A stretch of 31,642 nucleotides of DNA from Saccoglossus kowalevskii (Eukaryota > Hemichordata > Enteropneusta > Harrimaniidae). Below the pieces are notes generated by a model. It was not told the DNA's origin. It did no database searches and saw only the letters and a list, made by a program, of their open reading frames with translations. The stretch's first letter is position 1; the number at the start of each line of letters is the position of its first letter. Position numbers and translations under genes: made by a program. Shown in pieces: positions 5,991 to 30,328 of the stretch. The stretch is from NCBI RefSeq assembly GCF_000003605.2, contig NW_003149269.1:256023-287664 (forward strand), written 5' to 3'.

Positions 5991-6065
<75 letters not shown>
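5991..6065. repeat. (TTA)25 microsatellite
   Basis: Seventy-five bases of perfect TTA repeats, bordered on both sides by GTTACG or TACG-type sequence that also recurs in the adjoining tandem repeat. It may have expanded inside the first unit of that repeat. Confidence 0.97.
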
Positions 6066-6066
<1 letters not shown>

Positions 6067-6625
6067 GTTTGTTACGTTTTTTGTTCTCGGCCACACTCAA
6101 TAATGTGTAATTTCCAAATAACAAAAGCTTTATATTTATCGAGCTACATCTCAAGTAAATATGTCGTTACTGTATTACGTTCGTTACGTTTTTTTGCTCT
6201 CGATTCTACATAGTAATTTGTAATTTCCAAGTGACAGACGCTTCACATTTATTGAGCTGCATCTTGAGTAAATATGTCGTTACTGTATTACGTTCGTTAC
6301 GTTTTTTGCTCTCGATTATACTTGGTAATTTGTAATCTCCAAATAACAGACGCTTCACCTTTATCGAGCTGAATTATGGGTAAATATGTCGTTACTGTAT
6401 TACGTTACACTCAAAACTTTGTAATATGTAAGTAACCTACACACCTAAGTTCATCGTTTAGCCAGCTTCATCTCGAGAATGAATAAGACGTAACATTATT
6501 GTACGTATTCGTTACGTTACCGATTACATTTCATTACTTGTAATATACAAAACAGTTCGTCAAGCCGCATCTCCTACGAATACACAGTTACGTCATTACG
6601 TTACGTGTTCACGTTACAGGTTTTT
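6066..6625 (+). repeat. 112-bp tandem repeat, about five decaying copies
   Basis: The phrase TAAATATGTCGTTACTG recurs at 6156, 6269 and 6381 (spacing 113 and 112 bp) within units containing CGTTACGTTTTTTG, TAATTTGTAATTTCC and a CGAGCT(A/G)CATCT block. Units after about 6404 keep only parts of the pattern (CATCTCGAGAATGAATA, CATCTCCTACGAATACA). Identity falls steadily from left to right. Confidence 0.8.
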
Positions 6626-8385: not shown

Positions 8386-8685
8386 ATGAATTACCACAAT
8401 ATTGTTTTCACAGCGACATTTCTGTTGTGCCTTCTGACAAGTGGGTGCTGGTCGTGCGGTCCTGGGAGGGGCGGTGGACGGAGGAGACCATCGAGGGAAC
8501 TAACGCCACTGCTGTATAAGCAGTGTATCCCCAATGTATCCGAGAATACCCTCGGCGCGAGTGGACCGAACGAGAAAAAAATCACGCGGGAGGACGATGA
8601 ATTCAAAGACTTACAGACGGTGTACAACGCCGATATTATGTTCAAAGACGAAGAGGGGACCGGAGCGGACCGATTAATGACACAG
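8386..8685 (+). CDS. hh: Hedgehog ligand, exon 1 (codons 1-100: signal peptide and start of HhN domain)
   Basis: Secreted hedgehog morphogen, first coding exon. Hedgehog precursors are exported, self-cleaved and doubly lipidated, and bind Patched on receiving cells. The hydrophobic signal segment spans about residues 6-21, with cleavage expected before Cys24 of the CGPGRG motif, the residue palmitoylated in the family. Residues 31-38 (GRRRPSRE) fit the XBBBXXBX heparin-binding pattern. [12 protein letters not shown] (49-60) and [15 protein letters not shown] (86-100) are hallmark blocks; E89, E90 and D95 match calcium-binding residues of Sonic hedgehog. The start is firm: an in-frame TGA lies at 8380-8382 and A is at -3. 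The exon ends CAG|GTAAGG, a phase 0 donor after codon 100, the same length and phase as human SHH exon 1. Oddities are Cys47, where Phe/Tyr/His is usual, and NAD instead of NPD at 81-83. The open frame continues past the donor to 8754, but that part is intronic. Confidence 0.97.
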
Positions 8686-10770
8686 GTAAGGTTTTTTTAT
8701 CATGTATTTTGTCGAAACGATCTGAAAACTGTGTCACACGTGTTTGATGCATAACAACGTTGTTAATATATCAGCTATGTGTGCACTCGGCAAGTCCCAC
8801 GGCGATGACAGTTTGCTCCGCTGTGATTTGACTGTCCTTTGCAAGAGACAAAACCCCGAATCCATCAGTATTCAACCTCCGCGTCCGCGCCTCCAATCAA
8901 CGATAACGTTTCAGTTAATGACAACCTCAAGTTCCGTGCGTTGAATTTGACGGCAGTACAAGGGAATTGCGACGGGTCGTCTGCTTTAACTGAAGCGATT
9001 TAATCGTATCACTGCTATCGAGTTTATGTACGACAGGTCAGATTGTTTAACTTACCTTACCTTAGCTACGCGACGAGTGCCAATGTACCAGCCAGCGCGG
9101 TTTCGGATGTGGGGTTAAATCCCGCAGTCGTTAAAATACTAAATGGGGCTGTTGACAAAATGACTAAAAAGGGGGATTTTTAATTTGGTCCGATGTATTT
9201 CTGACGCATCGAAATGTGTTCAAAATTGAGTTATTTTTGGAGCTTCATATTTGTAAGCCTCGACTGGCTCGTAAAACTTGAAAATGGTAATCCCCCTAGT
9301 TAAATTAAGCCAAATAAAATCCGTACGTCAGATGCGTTAGCATTTTTTCGACTATTTTGTATTTTTAAAAATTGTAATTCTCGGTAAAGTAGGCAAATGC
9401 GCTTGTTTGAGTTTTGTTTTGTGTTGGTGCTGTTGTCGGACGGGGTAAGCCTATCGTGGTTGGGCAAATAACCTGTTTTCGGTGTTTATTAGTTATAATA
9501 CGTCGCTTATCGGAGTGTCTACATTTACGAGTATTTCAAATGCTAACAAAGACGCGATCTTTGTACTGTAGTTCGTTGTGGGCTATTACCGATTGACTCC
9601 AGCGTTAGAGTCGTTGTCGCACTCAATTTGTACCCCGATCAACAAACAGCTTCGGTAAACGAACACTTATAGCCAGACTGTGGCTAATGTCCCCCATTAC
9701 CTGTACGTAGCTCGCTGTATTTTAATTAAAAATATCAGAAAAAAATAAAAAAAATGTATATGTTTTCCTTCCGTTTTTTGGCACACCCTGGTTAAACGTT
9801 TTTTTTTTTATTCACCAGGATGGGATAGCGGCCGAGTAATACCGTATTTGCTTGTGAGATTATATTCGCCCCAAATTAAGGATAACGTCAAAACATGGCG
9901 CATTTCGGGCTATCAGCGCGATATTAATAACCGCATTTGTTTTTCACTGGCGCAAATTAACTCGAATTCACACGATGAGTGATGGTCCCCACGTCATAAT
10001 GATGCCTTTTAACTATATGATTTGTAAAAATAAAAATTAAAAATTAAAAAAAATCCCCTATATACGAATTATCCCCGATTTGACCTAGTCGTCAAGCTCG
10101 GCAAGTCTCGTAACACGGCGATCATCGCCGAGGAGGAAACTTGTCAGACTATACTATAGCAATATATAACTCGAAAAACCTGAATTGTAAAATCTAACTT
10201 GATGTTACAACCCGATAAAAAGATTAGCCAATTGATAACACAGACGTAGCAAGGGACTCCAAGATATCTCTTCGATTAGAGGCAAGGATACACGGCTGCG
10301 ATAACGACCCAGACAAGGAATTCTTCCGCGTCGGTCATTTATCACTAGAGCCAAATAAATGTTCTCCATTAAAAAAAATCTCATTTAATCTTTCATGATT
10401 CCTTTTTTCAGGCTTGAAAGTCGACGACGGGCCTGTCGTGGTTCTGTCGCCAATGCAATTCACGGTATGCGTCACGAGACTACGTTTCAGCGGCGGCAAA
10501 GCTTACTTTTCGTCCCCCAGCCGACATGGGGGTGATAACTTTCTCGAAAATCATCACGCCCAAATAGCATGCGCGAATTTTAACCCGAAAACTTAAAACA
10601 ATTCTTGTTTTAGCGTGCATTTTTGGTCGCAATAATATTTTACGCAGAACAGCCATGTTAAAAAAAAAAACTGTTATCGGCCCACAGACCTAAGCAATAT
10701 CTTCAAAAGCCGCCTAATATAATTTTTAAATTTTTTTTTTGAAAGTCATCTAGCGGCAAAACATTTGAAT
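8686..10770. other. Intron 1 segment, nothing specific seen
   Basis: AT-rich sequence with poly-A/T runs (for example 9735-9752 and 10021-10052). No gene, array or inverted repeat is supported. Confidence 0.5.
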
Positions 10771-11141
10771 TCAATAGGTGATTTTCCGAACAATTGCGAG
10801 ATCTCGCGAGATGCATGAAAGACGCGCGTCGAACGTCTGCTGCAAAAATCGAACGATTTGATTTTGAACTAGAATTTCTTTATTTCGCAGCTTACATTGA
10901 CCGGCCGATCTTCGACAGAGGAATATTGCTTCCGACTACCCTTACTTAATCGAAATTGCCTATCATCAAATGTGGACAGCACATTATTAAGCATGGAAAT
11001 GTCCCCGAAATACTTTCGCGTTTGTCGAATCCCACGCGATGTTTGACGCGACTACGACGCTATGACCTTTGTTTGTCCTGTTTTTACGTTCGATTTCACG
11101 CATAACGCGTGATTCTCGCAGTGTACCGGAAAATGGTCTAT
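10771..11141 (+). repeat. Duplicated intronic segment, copy 1 (371 bp)
   Basis: It matches 25072-25441 in direct orientation with 13 substitutions and one deleted base counted by eye (about 96% identity). Both copies break abruptly after GTCTAT on the right and before TCAATAGGTG on the left. It contains the palindrome TCTCGCGAGA (10802-10811). There are no terminal inverted repeats or poly-A tail. It is not coding: the frame open on the minus strand of copy 2 has a TAG here. Confidence 0.97.
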
Positions 11142-14100
11142 TTTAAACCTGTACTCTGCGGTGCCGGTATTTATTGAACGGAGCACAATGTCATCGATTT
11201 ATGTCGAGCGCGTGAAATGACGCGAGTGTGTGCAGTCGCTCGCCGACATTGTCTAACATCACAAAACATAAACTCATTCCACTTACAATTGCATATATTC
11301 AATTATTTCGCACTGTGATTATTATGACGCCGATATTAATGAGAACAAATGACGATGTTTAATTTGCCATTATCCACCGTATTATGGCGTGTGTTCAGTA
11401 GAAGTCGAGTCAAGTAGCCGTTTTATACCATTACTGACTTGTACTGGGTCACGTGACTTGTTCATCTCTTGACCGTCTCACGTCGGTACAGTGCGATATC
11501 TGGGCAGAACCTCGACTCATTGGTGACGTCACACCGGGTGGAGAAAGTGCATTCTTAGACCTCGGCGTTTAAACGATTTCTGTTCGGTGTTTGACAGATT
11601 TCGCTTCGTTTCTTTGAAAATATGTTATATATGTAAGTGACTGACTGATTCTTTAAAGAAACGTTGACTTTTTTCATCCTCTGAAAAGCAGGTTGTCGAC
11701 TTTTGATAAATTCCATTGAACGCACTGCACTGGGAGTAGCGTTAATCCCTTTCTGTTTTGTTTACGTGGTCTTTATTATAAGTTAAAATAGAACGATAAT
11801 CTTTGATTGGTGTATGTTTTTACAACGACTTTATTCGTACGCATTTTTTTTTTTAAAAAAAGGTAACGCAATCTTACCGTCGGGGTGTTTTCTCAATTAA
11901 ATTGTTTTACTGTGACTGCATTTTCTTTTATCCGTCAAATGTTGTACTTTTTGTTAATTTATAAATGTGATACGGTGTTCGCCTTTGTCCGTTCTGAAAG
12001 GAATTCCGTGCGTGTTTGCTTAAACGCTTATGGGCTGCCTATATGAGCCTGTACCGGACTCTGAGAAAAACAAACCCAAAATGGCCGCTGAAGTCAAACA
12101 ATGAATATCCTTGTCGGTTTGTGTGTGAGCTAGGGAGTCAGGCTGAAGTGCCCTTTTTTCAGTGGCCGTGTTAAAAGCCTAGGCGAAGTGGTTTGCGTTC
12201 AATCGGAAAACAAGCTATAAAACGACTGTAAAATGGCTCTGTTTGAAAACACGCAGAAAAGAATAATAGTCGCAACCGAACGGAGTACACGAAACCACTT
12301 GTAGTCTGTTATAAACCACTACTTTTGAAATTATTTCAAACTGACCTAACCGAAACAACTAAAAAGTAACTCATGGCGCTTCCGTATATTAGCCATATCC
12401 GGGCCTAAATTTTTAAACGAGATAATTTTTCCCGCCAAAAGAATACTGCTATATTTTGTATTTTTTTTACGCGTTTGTCAATGATGTCATCGTTAACTGT
12501 GTACCGCGTAGGCATGATTTACTATTGCATATATGTCTTGTTCAAAATTTGAAAGAAAACAAATATTGAAAAATAACATTGACCTTTGTTTTCAAAAGGC
12601 CTAATACATGTTACAAATCCAACTTCGAGCACGAGATTTCAGAACGAAAGTTACCAGACGTATTTACGCTCCAATCTACAATACCCGCTAACTAAGCAAG
12701 CACTAATGTTTTATTTTTTTCACGGAACTGTTTTTACTGTCGGTTAGCTGTGTTTTGGGTAAACTAACCAAAGTGTTGTTGTATATTATTTTGACACACA
12801 CCACAACAATAAGCTGGTGTTGAGGTGTCCCAATTTGTTTTCGTGACAGAGCCTTTCACTTGTCTCCTCCCGTGTATGTACCCTGCGTATAACATTACCG
12901 CTATTACAATGAGGCGCCTACTTCAGGGCTTACCAAGGTGAACTAACTCATAATTACCGGAAACCAGAGCTCCTAGTCAACCTGATTCCCATAGTAGAAC
13001 TCTTAAGAACACTTCTCAGTCACTGCAATCTCTGCTCTCTTATTAAACGATAGCCTAGAATCCATGCAGCGTTCCATGCACTCGCCCTGAGCAACTCCGC
13101 CAGCGCCTAGCTGCAATACTAGTAATATCACTTGTATTCCACACGCAACTGAATCTCCGCTCGTTACGCTATTCAAAATAGATTTGATTGGTCGAATAAA
13201 TAGGTCTAACTCTGACGTCATCGTGAGTGTTGCGTTCAGATGTGTAGCTAGACCATGGTGGTCATCGGACACGAGCGACACCCCAGTGAGGAATCCAGCA
13301 AAAAAAGTTGTCGCAGATTTTGATTACAAACTTTAAAACTTTAAACAGTGTTATTTTCATTCACGCACTAGCATGTCAAAGATTATTCTGTTATCAGCAG
13401 CACGTGCTACGCTAATAACATCAGTGCATTTGTGAATCTTTGCGAACTTATCATAAGATTATGACGTGGTAGATCGTCGAAAAAACGCGAGACGTGTCAG
13501 CTACTCGTAATACCGTGAAACGTTGAACCTCAGTGGTGACGCTAAAGAATCGGTTGCCTGTCGCGTGACGTGAGGCGGGTCCCGATAACAGAAAGCCGTG
13601 GAAACTATCGAAACTGATTTTAATGTCACCTCCATAACAATGGAACAACTATTCTTACTTCCAGAAGGAAATAACGGATTATTTATTGATGAGCAAATTT
13701 AAAGTAACGCTGTGGCCCGGTTAGACGCGCTCATCTCGTTCACATCGTGACCACGATATTTACCAAAATTTCAAATACCTCAAATTTGAAGTACACATTG
13801 AATACAACCCCTAAATCAATGTCACTGTGCTTGTTTAAAGTGGCATTAGTTTTCATAAAGAAGCACCGCGAAAACAAATAACCACTTGCTGAAGATGCAA
13901 AGGTGCAAAGCTCAATGACGGAAGCCCGTATGGCCGAGGTGAAGGCGAAACATCTCAACTCTGTAAATTTCAAGCGCCGTCGCAGCGCGCGTGTTCAAAT
14001 TTCGTGTAAAAATGCAATGCATTATGGGTCGGCGCGGGCCCGAATACCTAGGATTCTGTTTTTTTTTAAACTAAGTACGGTAAGCCAGCAAATCATATTT

Positions 14101-14730
14101 ATTTCAAAAATCTCGAAAATCAAAACAAACGAGAATTATGAAGTAGCAGATTCGTTATATTTGATGTGAAGCAATTGATATTTCTTGACAAAACAAGCAT
14201 AACGTAGACGACCGTCCATTAACACAGTGCCGTTTGTCATCGGTTCCGTATGAGTTGTGTCGGTGTGTGATCGAAATAACAAACGATAACATGTTCGATA
14301 TTCTGGAACACGACTGTAGAAAAAACAAAATAACACAGACGATATATTTTGTTAATGAAAATAATTTGTTGTATATTTCCAGACGATATTGCGTCGTCAT
14401 TCCAAACGAGCGACGCTGGCGCGTGTCTTACATGATATTAGATATGTCACGTTGCTGTATGCAAATCGGCCATTTTGGAAAATTCATTCCCGTCCTCTTT
14501 CGCGAGCACGAATCCCCAGAGCAAGTCAAGTTGCGATCAGTGACATCTCGTGCATGCCACTCTCTTTAGGAAACGTAGGAGGTTATGAATGTGAATGTGA
14601 ACCGGGACTCCCTAGCAACACTACATCATGATTCATACCATAACTCACGAGATCTCGCGATATTTCGGTCTATAATACGAAAGTCGAGGGAGAATCATAA
14701 TATGCTGGGAAAACATTTATACGCTGTAGG
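11142..14730. other. Intron 1 segment with palindromic motifs, no gene
   Basis: It holds a perfect GTCACGTGAC at 11448-11457 and TGACGTCA palindromes at 11524-11531 and 13213-13220. Small open frames between 13000 and 14630 show no recognisable protein. Confidence 0.5.
11448..11457. promoter_or_regulatory. Palindromic E-box GTCACGTGAC
   Basis: Perfect match to the extended CACGTG site bound by USF and MiT/TFE-type bHLH-zip proteins in animals. A second perfect copy is at 28161-28170. Function here is untested. Confidence 0.35.
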
Positions 14731-15000
14731 CCTTAAAGTTCTCACATCCTGGCACTTGCGTGACCCATAAAGATCACACATCCCGGTACTTGCCGGAGTG
14801 ATTCATTATCAACAGTAGTTTTGATTTCTGAAATAATACAACAAAATGTCAAAAAAAGTTTAAAACAAAAAAAACTGTTGAATTTAACAGAAATAGGTGC
14901 ATAAAGTTAGAAGGATTAAATTAGAAATGTGCTAGAACAATACCCAGTGCCATGTGTGACCTATAGGGTCATGAGTAAGGCGTAACATCGGGTCCTTTGG
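14731..15000. mobile_element. MITE-like inverted-repeat element A2 (diverged)
   Basis: The left side has two units with CACATCCTGGCACTT (14742-14756) and CACACATCCCGGTACTT (14775-14791). The right side has the inverted forms CCCAGTGCCATGTGTGACC (14943-14961) and AACATCGGGTCCTTT. The architecture matches element A1 near position 900, but the loop is longer (about 150 bp) and the arms are more decayed, suggesting an older insertion. Confidence 0.6.
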
Positions 15001-17469
15001 TGGCATTCCATGAATTTTGAAATTACACATCAAGAGACAAGGAATATGTAATATATAATAACAGCGATGCCAACAACGCCGACCTCAGGTTGCTATGCTC
15101 TCACATAAAGTCGTCGACGATGACGAGTGTTCATAAAAAAACATTGATATCTATATTTTTGATAAGATGAGAAGTTGTTTGTTTGTTTGTTTTAACTTTC
15201 ATGCCTCGTGTATATCGTCCCGTTTCAAAGACCCCGCCGCACCTTCGTATCGCCCAGACACCGGACGATGAGGATGATGCTTGTCAACGCATCGAACGAG
15301 TGTTCTTTCTTATCGGCGATACGATCCGACCTATAATGTTGAACCCCATGTACCGGTATGTTGATTATCTCTCGCATAGCGTGGGAACCTGGAGACGGTA
15401 CAGCCATCTCACCTGGCATACATGTGGTCAGTCGGTAGGTTATCATTTAATGCGTACACCTTTGCGGCGAATAGATCGGCACTGATCGAGCCCAGAGTCA
15501 AAACACTCACAACGTTCAATGGGAAGAAGAAAAAAAAACGACACGCGTCGATAGAATGATAATATTCGTGCTGTCATTAACATATTTGCTAATAAATGGC
15601 TAAATAAAGAAGAAAAAAACATGTTGTTTTTTAGTCCGATTACATCGTTATCACTGATTCGGCGCCGACTACCGCAGACGATAAAATGAATAGATATTTT
15701 GCGAGGCCATGTCGTCTAGAAAAAAAACGAAGAACGTCGGCCTTATTTCAGTACCCTAACTAGAACAGCAAATTATGTATTTTAAGGACGGTGTTGCCTT
15801 TATTTATTTAGTGGCTATTTTTTTTTTCTTGGGGTTCACAAATAGAATGGACAATCTGTCAAAATGGCGTCCTTGACGTCACACGATCTGTGTGGGTCTG
15901 CACTGTCTGAAAATGAAGACATTCGTGGCCAGATGTCCTAGATGTGATCAATTGTATCACTAAATCAGTCAACACGGAACTTGAACCCGCTCAATAGTTA
16001 TTATATTTACCAATAGTCTGTGATTTATAGATTGGTCTAGAATCTTCATTTGTTGCACATTTTAATTTTTTTAATGCATTTTTTCGTAATTTCTTTGTCA
16101 GTTGTACACATAATTTCACATTGACTCGATGACTTGATCCATATTTTCTCCAAAATATAGAACAAATTATGCAAATTAGTTAAAATTGTCTTTATTATCA
16201 ATGAAATACTCGGAGCTTAAAAGACGGAGTACATTTATTTGATGTGATCTTCTCACAGTTTTTTTTCGCCAACTATTGAATATACGGTCAGTTTCCATTC
16301 ATTACAAGCTAGGAACGAGGCTGAATTAGATGGACGTTTTCATGACGTACACGGACAACCATACCACGTGACCCCTCAAATCGGCAATTATACATGCGTA
16401 GAAAAGTTCTGGGAAGCTAAAGTTAGATGGTGTGCTCCGTCTTGAACGGTGGAGAAGACGTCGGTATCACGTCGTGCGATTTAGGAATTGGCCTTCGTCC
16501 AACATTTCTATAATTTATAGATTTTTATGAAAATATCGTAAATATGACTGGTGACAATTTACGATGCAGATGGCAGGTAACCAGGCACTGAGAGGTACGG
16601 AGTCGGAATTATCATTCCACCGCACCTGCACTGAACTCATATTTGGTTGTTTTTCCAAAGTCGTCTGCAACTTTTATAACTTGATTGTGGGGCTGGTTGC
16701 TAGCACGGCAAAGACGGTAAAGACAGCGTTGCTAGGAATCCCCATATCGTCATCTCTTATTAAAACTAATTAACTATGGAGTCACGTGGTTCCTAACGGT
16801 GCGATTGTCTCTCATGTTGGATTAGATCGATAGATTTTTTGTCGCCGCACGTCTCTCCAAATTTGGCGCGTTGTGAACTATTTTTCTCTTTTAGTTCAGA
16901 ACATTTACGACTGATGTACTATCGCGACCACAAACCCATTCTCTTGAATTTTATCAATATTCATGAACTTTAATTTCAACCGACATGCCAGTTAATGAGC
17001 ATTGTGCGCAATTGCGTCATTTGAAAACGTTTCAGTGTTATTCCAAACGGCTAATAACAAGATCTTGTTTCGTATGGATATTTATAAAAAATCAAATGAG
17101 GTTTGTGGTCAAAATAATACGACATAAATACTAGTTATTGGTAGAAACATTATATATGCATTCGTGTTATAGCTCCCAGCTGAGGAAATAAGTCAGAACA
17201 AACAAACAGTGACGACGTTCCAAAATGTCTCCGTAATAACTTCATATGCAATACTTGTGAAACTCCCTTCAGTTTATGTCAGATCTCGATATCTTTAAAT
17301 GCATGTTTACACAACGGGAGGGACATCTTGATATAAGACTAATCTCATTGCAAATGTACTCACTGGATTAACATTATAAAAAGAAAACACATGTCAGATT
17401 ACTCCTATAAACAATCGTGTTTCATGATTGTATTGTACAATCACAGGGATTGACAACCCCTTAATGGGG
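15001..17469. other. Intron 1 segment, no gene seen
   Basis: A short (GTTT)n run lies at 15177-15192 and a TGACGTCA palindrome at 15874-15881. Open frames such as 15183-15485 have no recognisable features. Confidence 0.5.
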
Positions 17470-17650
17470 AAATGGCCGCCGAGATCTCGTTAAGAGCAAG
17501 AGAGCCGCGTGACTTGTTTCTGTCCCCAAATTAGCGTCCACTGTTACGCTGACCTATGCAACTATGGTGTTTGGAAAAGTGCACGCGATTTTGAGGTCAA
17601 AACAAGTCGCGTGACTGTCTCGCTCTTAACGAGATCTCGGCGGTCATTTT
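17470..17650. mobile_element. Inverted-repeat element D (MITE-like, about 180 bp)
   Basis: The left arm 17470-17519 and right arm 17600-17650 are reverse complements over about 50 bp with few mismatches. Shared blocks are GCCGAGATCTCGTTAAGAGC and its complement, and CGCGTGACTTGTTT and its complement. The spacer is 80 bp and weak pairing continues inward. The arms contain the GAGATCTC palindrome. There is no coding capacity. It could be a MITE or a structured cis-element. Confidence 0.75.
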
Positions 17651-19415
17651 GTGAATAAATAATAGAATAAAACCAAGTATCGCGCGACGCACACAACGCG
17701 TGTGAAAAAAATTGTTTGTTTGTTGACACGGAATTTAAACGCGCGCGTCATGAAAATCTGTACTCTATAAGGCCCACAATTCAAATACCTCCACCCTCAC
17801 CTCATCTCATCTCCGACTCTTCAAACAACGACCAAACTGTTTTGAAACGGCTGTCTTTCATCAGAAGTCTATATGTTACACGAATTTCCCTCGCACCAAA
17901 TTCTCCATCGTTCAGTACAATAGTCTGAACGACACACGTCCACTTGATGACGACACCATCGTATTGTCACCATGACAACACGTGCCCGACTGCATAATTG
18001 ACGTTTTAAAAAGTCGCCTCCTCAATCTACATGTCGTCAACACTCACTCGTTTGTTTTCACAACTTTTCAACAAATTCCTTTGTACACCTTTAAGAAGTT
18101 AGAATAACAAACTGTTCTGACATACCCAGTTTTGAGAGGATCGTATCAAGACGTGTGTGGTTAATACGGTTAGTACTTAATTGACCGTTATATCAGCAGT
18201 TTAATAATTTGGTGACTACCTTGAACTTTCAGTAATGGTACTGTCAACTTCTCAAGTTGTGGACAAATCTTATCAATGGATTTTATGAACGCATTTCTGA
18301 ATGACTGTATAAAACAAGCTCCCGCGCCATGTTGCCATAGAACCGTCGAAACGGACATCTTTGATAATTAAAACTCTCGTGCTTTTTATGCAATAAACAC
18401 ACAATTTTATCCTCAGTGACGTCACATGGTGGATCAAGGAGAAAGAAAAGTAGTACTTATTAATGTTATTACAATCCCATTTATATAATCGCTGTTTTAT
18501 GTCAGTGGCAAACGGTTAAAATTTGTATCTTGATTTACGCATGCGCACAAGCTACGCTAAGATATTGTGCCAATAATTGAAAATACAAACCATGATGTAT
18601 GCAAAATTATGATTGACAATCTGTAGACAAAAATAGTTTATGAAAAAAATAATTGTGTTTAGCCATTCGAGTTTAACTCATGGATAGTTTTTATAACTGT
18701 TGTCTGATATGTTTACCAATACTTGTGTTGTATATATTCATCATTCTGATTGGTCGAGTAGGGTGCACAGAGTAACACGCGCAGTGATTGGCTGGAAGTC
18801 CCACTTCCGGTATACCGACGCCAGTAGTTGGTAGACCCTACGACTCAGTTCGAAATACAAGCGTTTATACGTCGTTTAGACGTATGTCAGTTGTCGAACG
18901 AGATCTCGCGAGATACTAGAACGTGGTGGTGAAGATTTCACCGCGAATTACTAGTAAATTATAGGTACAGGACAAACTTATTTAATATAAATTGCGTATA
19001 ACACGGCTGAACTTTTTAAAATTGTCTTTTCATCTCACTCGAAAAACCTTATTGCAACGTGAAAACTTCATATTGCACATATTGCATACTGTACATCACA
19101 TGGCGCTTATTTTCGCATTGTCATCTCGTTGATTTGATGGATCTGTTTCTATTTCCTGAGCTCTCCTATTTGCTCAATCTGTAGTAATAAAACATGGTAT
19201 TGGCAATGAGTCGAGAAATCCCTCGCCATAAAATACCCATTAACGGTAGCTCTTCGCATGACCTTTGTATATCGAAAGCTTCTCGTTCTGTGTGACGTAT
19301 TTGTTTTATCATCGTGTGTATTATTGTATGCCAAGTTGGGAAAATGTATTTTTTACCCGAATTTGTGATATATTTTTTAATTTATTCATAATTTTGAGCC
19401 CACGTGCTCAGTTTT
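17651..19415. other. Intron 1 segment, no gene seen
   Basis: It contains a TGACGTCA palindrome at 18417-18424 and a perfect TCTCGCGAGA at 18904-18913. It is otherwise unremarkable AT-rich sequence. Confidence 0.5.
18904..18913. promoter_or_regulatory. TCTCGCGAGA palindrome
   Basis: Perfect ten-base palindrome, embedded in GAGATCTCGCGAGAT exactly as in the two duplicated intronic segments, although the surrounding sequence differs. In vertebrates this motif marks some promoters and is bound by ZBTB33/Kaiso-type factors; its role here is unknown. Confidence 0.35.
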
Positions 19416-19465
19416 NNNNNNNNNNNNNNNNNNNNNNNNNNNNNNNNNNNNNNNNNNNNNNNNNN
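19416..19465. other. Assembly gap of 50 N
   Basis: Exactly fifty Ns, probably a placeholder length. The left flank ends CAGTTTT and the right flank begins CAGTTTT, so the flanks could overlap with no real sequence missing, or a repeat may have collapsed here. Confidence 0.95.
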
Positions 19466-20719
19466 CAGTTTTTAGTCCTGATCCTAATCATTGTAGAAAA
19501 TAATATTGACCAAATTGGTCGAAATATGTCTGAAATAATGTGTAGTTACATAAAAATAACTCAAAACTGACTTCGAATATAGAAAATAATATCGAAATGA
19601 TAAATAAATCCCCATCTAGCATTTTTGCGAGAGGATAATTTGGCTGTGAAAGGGTTAATTTGACTATTTTATAGATTTCAAATAAAAACAAATGACTTTT
19701 TATAGAGTGGTTTCGAAATATTATTCCCCTGGAAACGAGTATCATGAACAGTTTTTTTATTTAACAATACAGCAAAACGCTTTCTGCTTTATTTTAAAAT
19801 ATAAAGACTGTTCCATGATTCGCCATTTTTATTACAGCCTCGTTCACAGCGAAAAGGAAATAGCCGAGTAATTATTCTCTTATTGTTTTCTCCGTCGTAA
19901 ATCTTATGTTGATCATTATAAAAGCGTGTTAAATTTATGACAAGGACATTTGTGAACTTGACCTAGTACGGATAACAATCCGGCCGTTTTTCACACGATA
20001 CCAGCCGAGCGCAAAACATTATGGGCCTGTAAACAGGGGGATATTTATTTTTAAAACAATCCTATGTTGAAAAGTGAGTTTGTGGTTTACTTTTTATTTC
20101 CCTGGATAATTGATGACTATGGCAACAGCAAACAAAAACAACGCCACCGCCACAACATCTTACAATACTATTTGAAAGCAAGCGAAATTGAATCCAGTTG
20201 TATTGTAGCTTGAACAAACAGTTTCTATAAAGTTGCTTTAACACACGCTAGGGGAAGGTCACGTGCCTTTGCCGCGAGACCTATGTTGATTCTGCTCCTC
20301 GTGAAATAATGCGCTCGAAAACAAATTTCAACTTTGATCTTAAACCACCCGGAAATATACAATATACAGCGCGCCGGCTTTCTTTGATTATCGTCTGCTT
20401 TCGACGTAGACAAAATACAGACGTCATTCATTTACAAATCTCGCGAGACAAGAATGATGTACATTTATCAAACCACACAAAGAGTATTGTGTGTTTTCTC
20501 TAATCGCTAACGCGACATCGTGGTTTGCATCTGATGTCCTGCCTCGGTGCCAAATCAAAGTTTATCGTTCACGACACAATTTCATTGTTTTCCGAATAGG
20601 TGGCTGGTGCACTAGTTGTCCTGAAATGTTGGCTCGTATCAGACGTCGGGTTTTAAAAAATACGATCACCAAATTTTTTTTATCATGTATCCATGGCGGT
20701 ATCTATTTTACTTCCATGA
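19466..20719. other. Intron 1 segment, no gene seen
   Basis: AT-rich, with a perfect TCTCGCGAGA at 20439-20448. Open frames of 60-94 codons (for example 20491-20775) are not recognisable. Confidence 0.5.
20439..20448. promoter_or_regulatory. TCTCGCGAGA palindrome
   Basis: Fourth perfect instance of the palindrome in hh intron 1, here flanked by AAA and CAAG rather than the GAGA context of the others. Confidence 0.3.
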
Positions 20720-20840
20720 TATATCTTAGCCTCGTAACATGGATTGGCCACCTGACTGACTTAGACCAATCATGAATCATGGATATTAGCCTCGTTCCAG
20801 AGTATGGCAATCTGACTAATTTGAACTAACCATACTTAAG
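20720..20840 (+). repeat. 60-bp tandem repeat, two diverged copies
   Basis: ATAT-CTTAGCCTCGTAACATGG at about 20721 is followed 60 bp later by ATATTAGCCTCGTTCCAGAG. Both continue into TGG-CAnnCTGACT(A/G)A and an AAC/ACCA(A/T) block. Similarity is moderate. Confidence 0.55.
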
Positions 20841-21865
20841 CTAAACAGAAACTAGCAACTAACTTATTGGAAATATAGATAAATATATATTTTAAAATTT
20901 TGTGTTAATGGCAATATGTAGGGCCTAGCATGTTTTCGACAGCAACCAGTGGACCAGTTAACCATATCCACTGTTTCAGATATTATAGCTGCACGGGTCA
21001 GGGGAGCAGTGAACGGGAGAGATTGGAACACTAAATGAGGAGTTAGAACAAGTTAGAACGTGACCCTGGCGGCTATTTACGTCTAAGGTCAGTTAGAGTT
21101 TACACACTCTCGGACATTTCCTCATCCATGATTTCAATTTTCTATAACACCCCCCTCAAACAAAAAAAATAGCAGGTAGTATCACCCACCACCCCTGGAT
21201 TGACATGTAGTACCACCCAGCCTCGTTCAGACATTATTATATAAACCAAAAGCAAAGCCTTGATAAGTACCTAATCCTCAGCACGCGCGAAGGAATGTAG
21301 CATTTTTGCACAAAATAAATGAATATAGTCACATAAGGTCATTACTATTTGTTCGACAAGTGAAAATCCAAAAACAAATCAGTAGTAGACAGCAATAAAG
21401 GAAAGTAACAACAAAACTGTGTTCTCCTTAACCCAAAATTAACCTTTCGTAAAATAATTCTATCCAAGTTTTTTTTTTCTTCAAAAATTGTGATTAAAAT
21501 CTCTTGCCAGTGGGAAATTTATTTAATCCCAAATTAGCAAAATAAAACAAATGTAGAAAAATACATAAAAAACGAGGAATAAGTTGCGTAGTATTTTTGG
21601 TGTGAAAAAATATGGCGCCCAAAGTGTTAACACAAAAAAAATCACGAGATGAGATTTTGAGAACACCTGCGTACTGAGTCGTTCCTCCTCGTCGTACGTG
21701 TGCGTAAATTACTGACAGAGATTCATGGCAAACTATAAGGGCAGCGAGTCATATTTGCCAAGTGTAGTATTTGTATTAATACACAAGACGTGAACTTTTC
21801 AGTCGTCTCTGTGTCCTCTACGCGCCACGATCTCGACACCTGCCATACTAACGTACACAACCCTT
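20841..21865. other. Intron 1 segment, no gene seen
   Basis: It includes C-rich CACCCACCACCCC and TACCACCCA (21211-21219), the latter one base from the GLI/Ci consensus GACCACCCA. No coding signal is supported. Confidence 0.4.
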
Positions 21866-22385
21866 CGACGCGTTCCACTCAAACCGTCTGCACTTCAAAC
21901 AAGGGAAAAGGGATGGGTCATTTTTTCTATAGGGAGGGCGGACGTTCCACACAAATCGTCTGCACTTCAAACAAGAGAAAAGGGGTGGGACATTATTCCT
22001 TTAGGGAGGGCAGGGGTTCCACTCAAATCGTCTGCACTTCAGACTAAATATAAGGGGTCGGTCATTATTTCTATAGGAAGGGGGGGTCCACTCAAATCGT
22101 CTGCACTTCAGACTAAAGATAAGGGGTGGGTCATTATTTCTATAGGGAGGGGTGTCCACTCAAATCGTCTGCACTTCAGACTAAAGATAGGGGTGGGCCA
22201 TTATTTCTATGGGGAGGGGCGTCCACTCAATTCGTCGGCAATTCAGATTACTAGTATAGATAAGGGGTGGGTCATTATTTCTGCAGGAATAAGAAGTCTA
22301 CACAATTCATTGATACATTCGTCGACACTCTAGACTAGAGATAAGGGGCGTGTCATTATTTCTACGGGCGAGGGTTTCTGGTCAA
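21866..22385 (+). repeat. 67-72-bp minisatellite, about seven copies
   Basis: Units contain TCCACTCAAATCGTCTGC, ACTTCAGACTAAAGATAAGG, GGTGGGTCATTATTTC and TATAGGGAGG. The landmark CACTTC falls at 21891, 21963, 22035, 22104 and 22172, with degenerate forms at 22239 and 22326. Spacing shrinks from 72 to 67 bp before the last, interrupted unit. The central copies are most alike. Confidence 0.9.
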
Positions 22386-22644
22386 TATGCTACTTATGGT
22401 CTTTGACTGCGGTGCACAAAATTCAGTAAAAATATTCCATGTCAAAATCTGTCTAAAATCTGTCAGCAGTATGCAGGTCACTTTTATTTGCTTTTATGTG
22501 AATTTTGAGAACTAATGTCAACTAACATGAATCATGATAATCTTTTAATGAAAACACATTCTGTCATTAAAACTCACCAATCAAATGTTTATACATCTTG
22601 ACGTCAAGTACCTTGTACAAATACACCATTACCGCATTGGCGTG
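22386..22644. other. Spacer between two arrays
   Basis: Unique AT-rich sequence with one TGACGTCA palindrome at 22599-22606 inside CTTGACGTCAAG. Confidence 0.5.
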
Positions 22645-23350
22645 TTTGTAACTACATAGCATGTTTTTTGTAACTACATAGCATGTTCATGTAACTACAT
22701 AGTATCTTTTTGTAACTACATAATATGTTCTCGTAACTACATAGTATGTTTTTGTAACTACATAGCATGTTCATGTAACTACATAGTATCTTTTTGTAAC
22801 TACATAATATGTTCTCGTAACTACATAGTATGTTGATGTAACTGCATAGCATGTTCTTGTAACTACATAGTATGTTCATGTAACTACATAATATGTTCTT
22901 GTAACTACATAGTATGTTTTTTCTAACTACATATTATTTTTAACTACATATTTTTTGTAGCAAAACATTATTTTTGTAACTACATATTATGTTCTTGCAA
23001 CTACATATTATGTTCTCGTAACTACATAGTATGTTTTTGTAACTACATAGCATGTTCATGTAACTACATAGTATCTTTTTGTAACTACATAATATGTTCT
23101 CGTAACTACATAGTATGTTGATGTAACTGCATAGCATGTTCTTGTAACTACATAGTATGTTCATGTAACTACATAATATGTTCTTGTAACTACATAGTAT
23201 GTTTTTTCTAACTACATATTATTTTTAACTACATATTTTTTGTAGCAAAACATTATTTTTGTAACTACATATTATGTTCTTGCAACTACATATTATGTTC
23301 TTGTAACTACATAGTATGTTTATGTAACTACATAGTATTTTCGCTGTAAC
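22645..23350. repeat. 21-bp minisatellite with 285-bp higher-order duplication
   Basis: Roughly thirty units of about 21 bp, each with GTAACTACATA followed by GTATGTT or a variant. The block 22741-23025 is repeated almost exactly at 23026-23310, including an aberrant section with TTTTTGTAGCAAAACATT. Many units contain ATGTAACTACAT, with 5-bp inverted arms. Minus-strand frames encoding repeated CSYKN-like peptides follow the repeat period and are not credible genes. Confidence 0.95.
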
Positions 23351-23783
23351 AACACATAATGTTTTCTTCACTACACATTATTTTTCGACTGCAGATTATA
23401 ATTGTTCTCCGTTTCGTCTTGCCCCCCGGTACAAACATTTTTCGTCCCTGATTACCAAATAGGAAAGAGATTACAAAATAGTTTACTGTCTGTCTCGTTC
23501 TATTTCGAGAATTGGTTGTCATGGAAACCAAGTATTGCTATATCTGAAAGTAAACACCGGGCGCAGAATTGCAATATATAGCACAGGAAAGTCAATAAAA
23601 TAACGTTTACTCACCCAAACTCGATGGTAATAATTTAAACAGTGTAAACATATCATATCCACGAAGAACAAATCTCGTGATATTTTATTATAAAGCAGAG
23701 GTGATTCATTACTCTCCTTTTTATGAAAAAAAAATATTCGGTTTTATGTGATATATTTGTACGTTATCACATCTTAAAGATAT
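23351..23783. other. Intron 1 segment, no gene seen
   Basis: The first tens of bases are decayed minisatellite (AACAACACATAATG, CACTACACATTA). The rest is unremarkable AT-rich DNA. Confidence 0.5.
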
Positions 23784-24235
23784 CCGCCATGTTGTTCATA
23801 CAAGTTCACAGAAAGCTATAATGTAATGACCAAAATGTATTCAGAAAGGGCGTCATCGTCTGATTACATCATCGCATCGTGACATATCCAGCGTATTGCT
23901 CGTCTTAGTTAGTACTGATTGAAAGTTTTAATGTGATGACTATCTTCTTTTTAGCAAGGGGTTCACCGACAGAGTACGTCATCAATCCCGCCATTTTGTC
24001 CATACAAGTTTGCTGAAAAGTGTAATGTAATGGCTAACATTTTTTTAGACAGGGCGCCGCCGTTCGACTATGTCGTAGCCTAGTGGTGATATCCGCCATC
24101 ATTCTCCTTCCCAGAGTTCCTTGCGGTTAGATCACCAAAAGTATATATATATATATATATGCCTGGGAGATCTTACGAAGCTATAATATATTACATTTAT
24201 GTAGCCAGGGTGTTACAGTCACATTAATGAAATCT
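23784..24235 (+). repeat. About 103-bp tandem repeat carrying CCGCCAT motifs
   Basis: Unit starts fall at 23784 (CCGCCATGTTG), 23888 (CCAGCGTATTG), 23988 (CCGCCATTTTG) and 24093 (CCGCCATCATT), spaced 104, 100 and 105 bp. Each unit continues with ACAAGTT-type sequence, TAATGTAATGAC or similar, then an (A)GGGCG or AGGGG block and a TACGTCATC-like end. The fourth unit is interrupted by an (AT)n run at 24142-24160 and is degenerate. Confidence 0.75.
24142..24160. repeat. (AT)n microsatellite
   Basis: Nineteen bases of alternating TA within the last degenerate unit of the 103-bp array. Confidence 0.95.
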
Positions 24236-25071
24236 ATTTATTCAAAATTCCATTTAAATTTCAGATCACGAGCATTTTTTTCTTCTGTGAAACTTTAGTA
24301 GTCGTCTGAACCTTTGTAGTCGTCTGGTGTAAAGTGGGATACGCACAAGCTGGTCAATTGACAAATTGAGGCATCACGTGACGCGACCCCTTTTGAACAC
24401 TATTTTATTCCCGCTTAAAACATTTGTCACATTTTTGTGTATTTTTCCAAAAATTTTGGCCAAATTGACAAAATTTATCATTGGCTGCCGATCTTGATCA
24501 AAATTTGTAAAAAAATACGTAAAATAAATATGCAAATCTATATATTGTGAAAGATGGTAAAAGTTTCTACCGAATATGACCCACTACGATACATTTTCGC
24601 GCGCAATGCACAGCTACATCATAACAGTTTGAAACTGGACTGTGCGATTTCCATGAATCTCGTGGCAGTGACACGTGACTAAAAGTAAAAGTAAAGTAGA
24701 ACGCGGATATGATGTAGACGAGTGGTATTCAATTTACTGATAAATGTATCGCGGGCATTCACCGGATACCCACAATACACTGCGACAGCATGGGACTCCG
24801 TGTCTTCCGGAGTGAAGTTTAAAGTAGTTCATTTGTGAATAAAACTGCACTACACTTTTTCACACACAAAATCTGACCGGTATATACATAGTATAATGCA
24901 AATTTAAAGTCTGGTACAAGTAAGTGTTTCCATGACGACACGAACTATGGCGGCCATTTTAAATAAGAAAATTGCATAAACTAGGCCGGTAGTTTGAAAT
25001 TTACATTAATTGTTCATGTAGATGTTCATGAATTACCCTGTAGTCAAACAAACTTTGAAATTCGTGTTTCG
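24236..25071. other. Intron 1 segment, no gene seen
   Basis: It contains ATCACGTGAC (24373-24382), one base from the palindromic E-box, and TATGGCGGCCATTTT near 24945, a double YY1-like motif. Nothing else stands out. Confidence 0.45.
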
Positions 25072-25441
25072 TCAATAGGTGATTTTCCGTACAATTGCGA
25101 GATCTCGCGAGATGCATGAAAGACGCGCGACGAACGTCTGCCGCAAAAATCGAACGATTTGATTTTGAACTGGAATTTCCTTATTTCGTAGCTCACACCG
25201 ACCGGCCGATCTTCGACAGAGGAATATTGCTTCCGAATACCCTTACTTAATCGAAATTGCCTATCATCAAATGTATACAGCACATTATTAAGCATGGAAA
25301 TGTCCCCAAAATACTTTCGCGTTTGTCGAATCCCACGCGATGTTTGACGCGACTACGACGCTATGACCTTTGTTTGTCCTGTTTTTACGTTCGATTTCAC
25401 GCATAACGCGTGATTCTCGCAGTGTACGGAAAATGGTCTAT
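25072..25441 (+). repeat. Duplicated intronic segment, copy 2 (370 bp)
   Basis: Direct repeat of 10771-11141, lying 14.3 kb further into the same hh intron. Differences are mostly single transitions clustered around 25155-25200; the 60 bp around TTTGACGCGACTACGACGC are unchanged. It carries TCTCGCGAGA at 25103-25112. Flanking bases are unrelated to those of copy 1, so the duplication is sharply bounded. Confidence 0.97.
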
Positions 25442-26879
25442 ATATTCGTGTCCGATGTCATTGACTGGCAGAAGAAGAAAAAATAGTTAAGACAGGTGTG
25501 TTAGAAAGATGTCAGGCACTTTTCAAGGTCATTTGTAAGTTGTAACATTTTGAGTTGAGTAACGCCGATGAAAATTCATTTTATTAAAATGACGTGAATT
25601 TCTTCGAACAACCATTGATAAAAAAAAGTTAATAATCTGTCACGTTGTTTCCGTAAATCGTGTAGAATATTACCTTAGTGGACAGTGCGTACGTGAGTAA
25701 GCCCAGTAGAGGTATCCATTTCAAAGGATTTAAACTAAGTGGCGACCGAATGTAGTTCTTTACTGTCGGACACTGTGGGGGTAATAACGGTTAATTCATC
25801 TATTTCTAATTCATAGACTATGTCCGCTCTCAAAGAAAACACGTCTCGCCCTTATTAAAGAATAAAAGGCGGACACATAAACGTTGGCGAATCAAATTAG
25901 AAGGCTTCCATTGAGAACGACAGGGGGTATGGAACGTTTTACACTGATCGTACGACGCAACCAAGCGCCGAGAATGGCCGTAAAGGCGTTTTTATAATAA
26001 CCTTATTAAAGTCACTATAGATGTCTGAATTAACACGTGATGTCGGGTATAATTGCTACCACTGACAAAGTACCGACACCATCAAGACAGCGTCCCCGAC
26101 AATCGCGGAAGGCCACTTCTGGTCAACGAAACGTAAATTAAATTATACTTGCATGCATGCGATGGCTAGGTGTACTGTCGATTTTACATTACGTTTGTCA
26201 CTTGCACGTTTGCATGAACGTATCTGCATTTGTGTGTTTAAATGACAATACATTACCGCGTCGATAATTGTAAACAAAACACCAGACTTATTTAATTATC
26301 AGATGTCACTCGTTTTATTCCCACGTGGCGAAAAAGCGTCACTTGTATTACATTTTTTTTATTTTCGTTTTTATCAATGTATTTATGCGGTTTTAATATA
26401 AATACGTCTGAGGGGTGTGTCCCGATGGCGAGCTTATATGAATTCCCGTCTAGTCGCTCGTCGGCGAGTTCTGTGATGCAAGCAAAGCGACAATGCGTGC
26501 CGGTGAACTCCACTCATTGACGGCGCCTCTCGCGAAGACGCCATTTTGAACTCCAAGATGAAGTAGAGCCCGGGTGATTAAAGTTGCACTCCGTGATCAT
26601 TCATGTAGCTTTATTGGGGTCTTGGAACTATCATGAGACACATTTGGCGATAGCAATATGCGTAAATTGAGGGAATATTTAAAGATTCGCCCGAATTCGC
26701 CGCTGTATAGAATTACTGCCGGCACAGAAGCAAATCTTCGCGAATCCATGCGTATCAAAGCACTATTCCAAAGCGTTAGTAACTGATTTCCAGCATATAA
26801 TCTAAATGATCGCCAATATTTGGTCGCGTTGAAAATGGAACGTTTAAGTCTGGCAATTCAAATTCTTCACCACTGAGCG
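25442..26879. other. Intron 1 segment, no gene seen
   Basis: Apparently unique, AT-rich. The open frame 26292-26513 on the minus strand lacks recognisable features. Confidence 0.5.
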
Positions 26880-27172: not shown

Positions 27173-28579
27173 AGAAAGGAAATGGGATAGAGGGCCCAGG
27201 CGGTACTTGAAACTTTTGAATTAACGTGAAACTGTGGAAATGCAAACCTCGGGTGTATATTTCAGTATCTGATATAAAAGGGTTGCACTTATATGTCGGA
27301 TTAGGTCTAAATGGGTTGGGCGCTGAATAATCGCTTCTGAAATAGCTGTAGTTTGAAATGCTATACTTTAATATTGTTTTTTACATTCCTCACACATCCT
27401 TACAAACTCGGATTTTCAAGAGCCCAATCAAATACACAACTTAACTGATTTTAAAAAACAAGGTATTTAGATATAAAATATTGAGTTCGCACTGGTCTAC
27501 ATGGGTTGGAAGAGGTTGCATATTGGGGTGGTACATTCCATTTTGTCCGAACCACTCAATGGTGTTGGTCACGTACTGTTTATTCCCTTGGGTTCCAAAG
27601 TTAACTGTTGCCATAGAAACCTGAATGATTGTTACCTGTAGAAATTTGGAAATTAAGTTCATTTGGTCCAAAATAAACAAAGAAATTGTAGTTAACACGG
27701 GGAAGCCGTCACCTATCCATGTGACAGACGGCCATGGCGTGTCGTTGTTTACAAACAAACGTTTACTGATAAGCCTTTGCGTTTTAGCGTGCGTTGTTAT
27801 CGTCGCTTGGGACTCAATTCCCTCGCGTGCGCAGGTGACGACCCCCTCCGATTTAAATGAACGAAAAATAAAAAAAAGATAAATGTTGCCCCAGAATTAT
27901 CGCGGAAAACATTGTCGCATTCAAACTGTTAATATATTGACAAAAAAACATTTGAATACTAATGAATTCACTTCACCACAAGAATTGTATTTTCATAGCG
28001 CAAACTGCCGTGTTTGTGACAGGCAACTACTTACGCCCTTGACATACATTTTGAATGAAATTGCACGTGAGTGTCAACTCATCGAGTTTTATCAGCTTTT
28101 TTTCCTTTTGATGTGAATGTACATGAATGCAACCTCAAAAGCGTGAAACGGTGTGTCAATGTCACGTGACAGTTTGTCTGAGTATATCATCAAATGCGCC
28201 ATCTTGTTCGTAACCAGTCGTGATAAAATCACTTATATATACCTCCATGTGTACGGTGAACCAACTTCGAAGCAGTCTGCGTAAATTGGGAATATATACA
28301 TTATGTCAGCAAATCAGACAACACAATTTAACCTTCAAACACTTGTTTTGACCTTTCTAAAAAGAACAATTAAACGAGTAATTGGTGATAATGTTGATAA
28401 CTATCTTTCAACGGGTTTACATTGAACGAAAGGAAAGCCTTGAAGTCCATGGTTATAACGGAATGTTGACTTTTGTAATCAATTTGTCGTTAAGAGTATG
28501 TACATATTGAAAACAAATACCTTCCGGGGATCACAGCGGAAAGTTAAAACAAATCGCTATATTTGAAGTTGTCCGTACA
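27173..28579. other. Intron 1 segment, no gene seen
   Basis: The overlapping opposite-strand open frames at 27441-27882 have no recognisable domain. A perfect GTCACGTGAC lies at 28161-28170. Confidence 0.5.
28161..28170. promoter_or_regulatory. Palindromic E-box GTCACGTGAC
   Basis: Second perfect copy of the extended E-box in this intron, about 1.3 kb before exon 2. Confidence 0.35.
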
Positions 28580-29471: not shown

Positions 29472-29733
29472 AGGTGCAAAGACAGATTGAATTCACTTGC
29501 GATATCAGTGATGAACCAGTGGCCTGGAGTCAAACTTCGTGTTACCGAGGGCTGGGACGAGGATGGACACCACGCGCCCAACTCTTTACATTACGAAGGA
29601 CGCGCCGTGGATATAACGACCAATGACAGGGATCGTACCAAATATGGCATGCTTGCGAGGTTAGCCGTGGAGGCAGGTTTTGACTGGGTGTTTTACCAGT
29701 CTCGCGCGCATGTGCACTGTTCTGTTAAAGCAG
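29472..29733 (+). CDS. hh: Hedgehog ligand, exon 2 (codons 101-187 + 1 base; core of HhN signalling domain)
   Basis: Second coding exon, joining in frame to exon 1 as [16 protein letters not shown]. It is 262 bp long, as in vertebrate SHH, and ends GCA G|GTGAGT in phase 1. The acceptor is a T-rich tract ending CTTAG just before 29472. Zinc ligands H140 (LHYEGRAVD), D147 (VDITT) and H182 (HVHCS) are present; E126, D129 and D131 (TEGWDED) complete the calcium site used in co-receptor binding. Residues [17 protein letters not shown] (157-173) are the most conserved block. Position 176, a zinc-site glutamate in Sonic hedgehog (YES), is Gln here (YQS). Residues 135-137 are APN rather than the usual SEE-like residues. 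The rest of the gene, including the GCF autocleavage site and Hint domain, lies beyond the window and is not visible. Confidence 0.98.
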
Positions 29734-29962
29734 GTGAGTCAAAGCGTCCCTTAGCTATTCTAGTTAGTCACGGTGATTTGTAGGTCACGCGTGATTGGCT
29801 AGTTCCAGTGATAAAAACTCATCACGTCTGTATATACTAAACGGAGAAAAATTACTTTGATGTTTTCAAATGATGACAACTACAATTTATCACTGACTAA
29901 TGCTTTTATCATGTGACTTAGCAAATCACTGAATCAGTCAATCATGACTGTTTCAATCACGT

Positions 29963-30240
29963 GCTTGTTGCGCATTGCGTCATGTCATTGCGGCATATAG
30001 ACGGTGTTGCGCATTGCGTCACGTCACTACACACGTCATTGCGTCATGTTTCGATGTGCGTCACGTCGCTCTACACGTGATTGCGTCAAATAGACGTTGT
30101 TGCGCATTGCGTTACGTCACTATACACGTCATTGCGTCATGTTTCGATGTACGTCACGTCGCTCTACACGTGATTGCGTCATATAGACGTTGTTGCGCAT
30201 TGTGTCACGTCGCTCTACACGTATTTGCGCCACATAGACA
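29963..30240 (+). repeat. 93-bp tandem repeat rich in CGTCA
   Basis: GTTGCGCATTG(C/T)GT recurs at 29967, 30005, 30099 and 30192, the last three spaced 94 and 93 bp. Units include CACGTCACTACACACGTCATT, CGTCATGTTTCGATGT and GTCGCTCTACACGTGATTGC-like text. More than ten CGTCA half-sites fall within 280 bp. The long open frame over it (29975-30274) repeats with the array and is not a gene. Confidence 0.9.
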
Positions 30241-30241
30241 A

Positions 30242-30328
30242 TGTATTTTATACGCGTTGAATACGTCACTATGAGTCCCATATCCAACAGAACACGGTGC
30301 GATGACCACCGCCCTTTAATATTAATGA
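30242..30328 (+). repeat. Dispersed repeat family B, copy 3
   Basis: TGTATTTTATACGCGTTG, TACGTCACTATGAGTCCCAT, CCAACAGAACACGGTGCGA and GACCACCGCCCTTTAAT. It directly abuts the 93-bp array, so the array may have arisen from amplification of its upstream edge. Confidence 0.75.

What the first reader, a model, noticed from the sequence alone, without database searches (positions are those of the whole stretch)
10771..25441. A 371-bp sequence occurs twice in hh intron 1, 14.3 kb apart
10771-11141 and 25072-25441 are direct repeats with about 14 differences (about 96% identical by eye). Their ends are sharp and there are no TIRs, poly-A or clear target-site duplications. Both sit inside one developmental gene's intron. 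Either this is a young mobile element family, or a local duplication of a cis-element that has produced a redundant (shadow-enhancer-like) pair. The longest unchanged run surrounds TTTGACGCGACTACGACGC and TCTCGCGAGA is intact in both, while a minus-strand frame is broken in copy 1, arguing for non-coding function or simple youth.
Basis: partly seen in the sequence, partly recalled or inferred. Interest (0 to 1): 0.75.

Follow-up and report, generated by a model that had tools for sequence, protein, structure and literature searches.

The report
High-copy MITE inserted twice in hedgehog
The two near-identical sequences in the hedgehog intron are separate insertions of a short, recently active, high-copy jumping-DNA family with no recognisable gene of its own, so the finding is ordinary and gives no evidence for a duplicated enhancer.

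Summary
The repeat is real: 10771-11141 and 25072-25441, 357/371 identical, both between two exons of a hedgehog signalling domain. It is not a two-copy element. The window's own 572-Mb genome gives about 2,000 first-look candidates and 1,309 exact hits of its 16-base terminal motif, against 1 for the reversed control. Two insertions into another repeat (L025, L024), set against nine uninterrupted copies of it, seven reading AATT, show insertion at AATT with an extra AT. A|AT|T is the published target of ISL2EU DNA transposons (PMC4482050). No Pfam domain was found in the frame tested, so this looks like a MITE moved by another element's transposase. The window copies are independent insertions: 15 differences from each other, 4 from copies elsewhere, unrelated flanks. 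No autonomous partner was linked to it; the DDE transposase search did not complete. Ordinary: a new member of a known kind.

The parts
10776..11139 (+). Copy 1 of the MITE, excluding the AT target-site duplications (AGG...TCT, 364 bp); the same unit with AAT/ATT ends is 10773-11142
   Evidence: 4 differences from the 369-bp consensus; ends from 69 copies and empty sites
10774..10775 (.). Left AT target-site duplication of copy 1, within A-AT
   Evidence: position inferred from the empty sites of L025 and L024
11140..11141 (.). Right AT target-site duplication of copy 1, within AT-T
   Evidence: position inferred from the empty sites of L025 and L024
10776..10830 (+). 5' terminal inverted repeat of copy 1 (imperfect, inner limit approximate)
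   Evidence: consensus termini aligned to each other
11085..11139 (-). 3' terminal inverted repeat of copy 1 (imperfect, inner limit approximate)
   Evidence: terminal 16-mer at 11127-11142
25077..25439 (+). Copy 2 of the MITE, excluding the AT duplications (363 bp); with AAT/ATA ends 25074-25442
   Evidence: 13 differences from the consensus including the last base; terminal 16-mers at 25074-25089 and, with 1 mismatch, 25427-25442
25075..25076 (.). Left AT target-site duplication of copy 2
   Evidence: inferred as for copy 1
25440..25441 (.). Right AT target-site duplication of copy 2 (followed by A, where 64 of 69 copies end ATT)
8386..8691 (+). hh coding exon upstream of both copies (splice site not tested)
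   Evidence: Pfam HH_signal E=4.6e-29, profile 1-77
29472..29740 (+). hh coding exon downstream of both copies (both ends approximate)
   Evidence: Pfam HH_signal E=8.1e-48, profile 78-161
27704..27859 (-). A copy of the unrelated repeat that carries this MITE in L024 and L025; here its AATT site is empty

Best explanation
Both copies are independent insertions of one young, high-copy, non-autonomous DNA transposon family (a MITE of about 363 bp) with imperfect inverted repeats of about 50 bp at its ends. Shown: the high copy number, the common ends, the inverted repeats, and insertion at AATT with an extra AT. Inferred: a DDE transposase of the ISL2EU group, encoded by another element, binds the inverted repeats, cuts the element out and inserts it at A|AT|T; the copies in the hh intron are passive passengers.
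For: Copy number: 2,022 and 2,067 first-look candidates; the 40 scored in each search were essentially full length at 97-100%. 1,309 exact terminal 16-mers against 1 reversed-control hit. Ends: of 69 full-length copies, 67 begin AAT, 64 end ATT, 62 have both. TIR alignment. In the first 100 of 1,309 listed motif places, 26 converging pairs of neighbouring opposite-type motifs, 284-371 bp long, 16 of them exactly 369. Empty sites: L025 and L024 lie in opposite orientation at the same site of another repeat; nine other copies of that repeat were printed across the site, seven reading AATT (window 27704-27859 among them), one AGTT (L035) and one GATT (L055). Flank preference C at -1 in 34 of 69 (p=2e-9), G at +1 in 26 of 69 (p=8e-5). 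Published ISL2EU features: A|AT|T target, TIR 6-259 bp, the 14 host species all animals (PMC4482050, passages). Independence of the window copies: 15 differences between them; copy 2 is 4 from L049, copy 1 is 4 from L009 and others; flanks no more alike than shuffled. Youth: 3 of 69 copies identical to the consensus, median 5 differences.
Against: No autonomous element with these ends was found: of 10 terminal motifs with a non-MITE inner sequence none pairs with another (all on different contigs), and one is merely an end of a 284-bp derivative; that filter would miss a parent which keeps the MITE's inner sequence. 12 YqaJ hits exist in the genome but none was tied to this family; the DDE_Tnp_4 search did not complete (10 tries, last). 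TIRs begin AG, whereas ISL2EU TIRs 'usually' begin GG and Pangu TIRs usually AG or GG. From sequence, a 2-bp AT duplication cannot be told from a duplication-free insertion of TAGG...TCTA between AA and TT. Only two filled sites were compared with empty ones, and both have blemishes: L024's repeat lacks a stretch on one side, and L025 has a second MITE beside the insertion. The 69 copies are biased to the best matches. Copy 2 has A instead of the final T.
Confidence: 0.85

Rival explanations
1. The MITE belongs to another DDE group (Spy-like insertion without duplication, Pangu, or an undescribed PHIS/IS5-like group) rather than ISL2EU.
For: A zero-duplication insertion of TAGG...TCTA between AA and TT gives the same sequence; TIRs begin AG, which the survey gives for Pangu rather than ISL2EU; no autonomous partner was found.
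Against: Spy's AAATTT target is not met: A at -1 in only 6 of 69, C in 34 of 69. Pangu's ANT duplication would give the same three bases on both sides, here AAT and ATT differ. A|AT|T is the published ISL2EU target.
Confidence: 0.13
2. The second copy arose by local duplication of the first inside the hh intron.
For: Same orientation, 96% identical, 14.3 kb apart.
Against: The copies differ by 15 changes while each has relatives elsewhere at 4; they share one derived change, which 40 of 69 copies carry; 500-bp flanks show no similarity above shuffled; both end at the transposon ends.
Confidence: 0.01
3. A redundant, shadow-enhancer-like pair of regulatory elements of hh.
For: Location in a developmental gene's intron only.
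Against: Over a thousand terminal motifs genome-wide. The long unchanged runs are what any two young copies of the family show. No chromatin or expression data were available, so activity itself was not tested.
Confidence: 0.02

Closest known systems
ISL2EU group of the PHIS (PIF/Harbinger-ISL2EU-Spy) DNA transposon superfamily (PMC4482050, passages seen)
   Same: AT target-site duplication within A|AT|T, TIR length in range, animal host
   Different: No coding domain found; TIRs begin AG instead of the usual GG; autonomous partner not identified
MITEs in general (short high-copy derivatives of cut-and-paste transposons; definition recalled)
   Same: A few hundred bp, TIRs, no coding domain found, homogeneous length (59 of 69 copies exactly 369 bp including the three bases at each end)
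   Different: Nothing notable
Spy group (PMC4482050, passages seen)
   Same: AT-rich palindromic target, same superfamily in the survey
   Different: Target here is AATT mostly flanked by C or T, not AAATTT
Pangu group (PMC4482050, passages seen)
   Same: TIRs often begin AG
   Different: ANT 3-bp duplication not seen; flanks are AAT on the left and ATT on the right

Membership tests
MITE (non-autonomous TIR DNA transposon) | Many copies with the same ends | tested here: met
MITE (non-autonomous TIR DNA transposon) | Terminal inverted repeats | tested here: met
   about 50 bp, imperfect; 16-mers at both ends of both window copies, one with 1 mismatch
MITE (non-autonomous TIR DNA transposon) | Short and without a transposase gene | tested here: met
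   369 bp; the minus-strand frames of both copies match 0 Pfam families at E up to 1; other frames not scanned, but none of 60 codons or more lies mainly inside the element in the six-frame list
ISL2EU | 5'-AT-3' duplication within A|AT|T target | tested here: met
   62 of 69 copies have AAT...ATT; two filled sites against empty AATT. A zero-duplication reading is formally possible
ISL2EU | TIR of 6-259 bp | tested here: met
   about 50 bp; range from PMC4482050
ISL2EU | TIR usually begins GG | tested here: inconclusive
   AGG and AGA at the two ends; the published rule is only 'usually'
ISL2EU | Autonomous partner with THAP/DDE transposase plus YqaJ protein | tested here: inconclusive
   12 YqaJ hits in the genome but no link to these TIRs; DDE_Tnp_4 search not answered (last try); none of 10 non-MITE motif contexts pair with each other
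Spy | Insertion within AAATTT, no duplication | tested here: not met
   A at -1 in 6 of 69, C in 34 of 69
Pangu | ANT 3-bp duplication | tested here: not met
   AAT left and ATT right in 62 of 69; only 2 of 69 have AAT on both sides; rule from PMC4482050
PIF/Harbinger | TWA 3-bp duplication | tested here: not met
   empty site AATT; rule from PMC4482050
Tc1/mariner | TA target duplication (recalled) | tested here: not met
   empty site is AATT, without TA
Duplicated cis-element (shadow-enhancer pair) | Locus-specific pair rather than a dispersed repeat | tested here: not met

The most novel reading that the evidence does not exclude
One or both MITE copies have been co-opted as regulatory sequence of hh in this animal, so that a mobile element delivered two similar modules to one developmental intron.
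Probability: 0.03. Interest if true: 0.5.

Novelty: new member of a known kind. Interest (0 to 1): 0.08.

Why it matters
It removes a candidate enhancer pair from consideration and describes a MITE family with a target-site signature like that of ISL2EU elements. Three of 69 copies are identical to the consensus, so the family moved recently. Beyond annotation of this genome it matters little. Whether the family is already named in Repbase or Dfam could not be checked here.

Tried and rejected
Non-coding RNA: 0 Rfam matches at gathering threshold and 0 tRNA genes in the window. Phage collection: one weak match to query bases 9-36, E=0.4; plasmids: none. Viral contigs: none for an exact 35-base core. 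Target-site duplications outside the ends: 2-11 bp tested at many offsets; nothing stood out except matches that lie inside the element's ends themselves (42 copies, 69 copies). A larger element with the same 16-base ends but a different interior: 10 hits on 10 contigs, no pairs among them. Rough copy number from paired and single terminal motifs in the first 100 listed places: about 1,260, an estimate that assumes the two ends are lost independently. Rows dropped before the 69-copy count: L001-L008, L048, L058 and L072 as repeats of copies already held, and three partial matches (two in L011, one in L064). Papers: PMC4482050 and PMC9179366 were seen as passages; all others only in search listings.

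Full report
Observation. The two stretches exist as described: 10771-11141 and 25072-25441 align over 371 columns with 357 identities and one gap, in the same orientation. They lie between window 8386-8691 and 29472 onward, which encode successive halves of the hedgehog signalling domain (Pfam PF01085 profile positions 1-77 and 78-161). The gene is therefore hh and both copies are in one of its introns. The exact splice sites, and whether it is the first intron, were not tested.

Copy number. The genome in which the window lies (572 Mb, 4,830 contigs, unnamed) was searched with each copy. Copy 1 gave 2,022 first-look candidates and copy 2 gave 2,067; only the best 40 are scored each time, and these were essentially full length at 97-100% identity. 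The terminal motif AATAGRYSATTTTCCG occurs 1,309 times exactly, against 1 time for the reversed control. Among the first 100 listed places, 26 pairs of neighbouring, converging, opposite-type motifs span 284-371 bp, 16 of them exactly 369; pairing statistics suggest roughly 1,260 copies with recognisable ends (a rough estimate from 100 of 1,309 places).

Anatomy. Flanks of 42 copies and then 69 copies, the two window copies included in both, fix the ends: AATAGG at the left in 67 of 69 and TCTATT at the right in 62 of 69. The consensus is 369 bp (built from 42 copies; the script added the last T to each, which 40 of 42 copies in fact have). Its two ends are inverted repeats, AATAGGTGATTTTCCG... 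and AATAGACCATTTTCCG..., with similarity continuing to about 50 bp. Neither minus-strand frame has a Pfam match. Three of 69 copies are identical to the consensus, the median has 5 differences and the largest 16; 59 of 69 are exactly 369 bp. These 69 are the best matches, so older copies are under-represented.

Target site. No duplication is seen outside the ends. Two copies, L025 and L024, sit inside another repeat. Nine copies of that repeat were printed uninterrupted across the site: seven read CTC-AATT-CC (L017, a second copy in L024, L062, L013, the window at 27704-27859, L054, L046), one AGTT (L035) and one GATT (L055). With the insertion the site reads ACTC-AAT[element]ATT-CCCGC, and L024 and L025 are in opposite orientations. 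The evidence has blemishes: the L024 repeat lacks a stretch beside the insertion on one side, and in L025 a second MITE-like element lies 4 bp from the insertion, flanked on both sides by ACTCAATAG, so L025's left flank must be read past it. The target is therefore AATT and the insertion adds AT. Flanking bases prefer C before and G after (34 and 26 of 69; p=2e-9 and 8e-5), a partly palindromic preference.

Identity. The 2015 survey of PHIS transposons gives for ISL2EU an AT duplication in an A|AT|T target, TIRs of 6-259 bp usually starting GG, 14 host species that are all animals, and autonomous elements with a THAP/DDE transposase and a YqaJ protein (PMC4482050, passages). Target, TIR length and animal host match here; the first base does not match the usual GG, and AG is given for the Pangu group, whose ANT duplication is however not seen. 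A non-duplicating insertion of TAGG...TCTA between AA and TT would look the same, but the Spy target AAATTT is not met. Motif hits whose inner sequence differs from the MITE number 10, on 10 contigs; one of them (C254) is an end of a 284-bp derivative seen. That filter would miss a parent element that keeps the MITE's inner sequence. So: a MITE with high confidence; ISL2EU-mobilised with fair confidence.

The two window copies. They differ from each other by 15 changes, while copy 1 is 4 changes from several copies elsewhere and copy 2 is 4 changes from L049. They share one derived change, which 40 of 69 copies carry, and their 500-bp flanks are no more alike than shuffled sequence. They are separate insertions from different source copies, not a local duplication.

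Verdict. With roughly 1,260 copies in 572 Mb the average is one per about 450 kb, so two in 20 kb is unusual for a random spread, but insertions need not be random and one such pair somewhere in the genome is no surprise (inference, not tested).

Noticed in passing
22646-23354: A 21-bp minisatellite of about 34 units with a 285-bp higher-order repeat (22690-22974 and 22975-23259, 98% alike) in the hh intron.
   Followed up: no
29981-30259: A 93-bp tandem repeat (about 3 copies) rich in TGCGTCA/CGTCA motifs just downstream of the second hh exon; a CRE-like resemblance is recalled only.
   Followed up: no
21872-22282: A tandem array of 69-72-bp units.
   Followed up: no
59-167 and 5991-6065: Long pure (ATA)36 and (TTA)25 tracts; the second abuts a 112-bp x3 tandem repeat at 6061-6406.
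   Followed up: no
27704-27859: Copy of another dispersed repeat, matched in up to 11 fetched loci; the empty-site host repeat used here.
   Followed up: partly
30234-30319: A stretch matched in up to 4 other fetched loci, so probably another dispersed repeat.
   Followed up: no
L025, L029, L044, L011: A second MITE-like family with GCTGGTTCCCG ends; in L025 it is flanked by ACTCAATAG on both sides, suggesting a duplication of about 9 bp.
   Followed up: partly
L011 2373-2451 and 2782-2817; L064 3034-3212: Older relatives of the MITE (about 82% identical over 85 and 181 columns; a 36-base piece identical), so the family has an older layer; in L011 the second MITE appears nested inside it.
   Followed up: partly
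19416-19465: A 50-base run of N, presumably an assembly gap.
   Followed up: no
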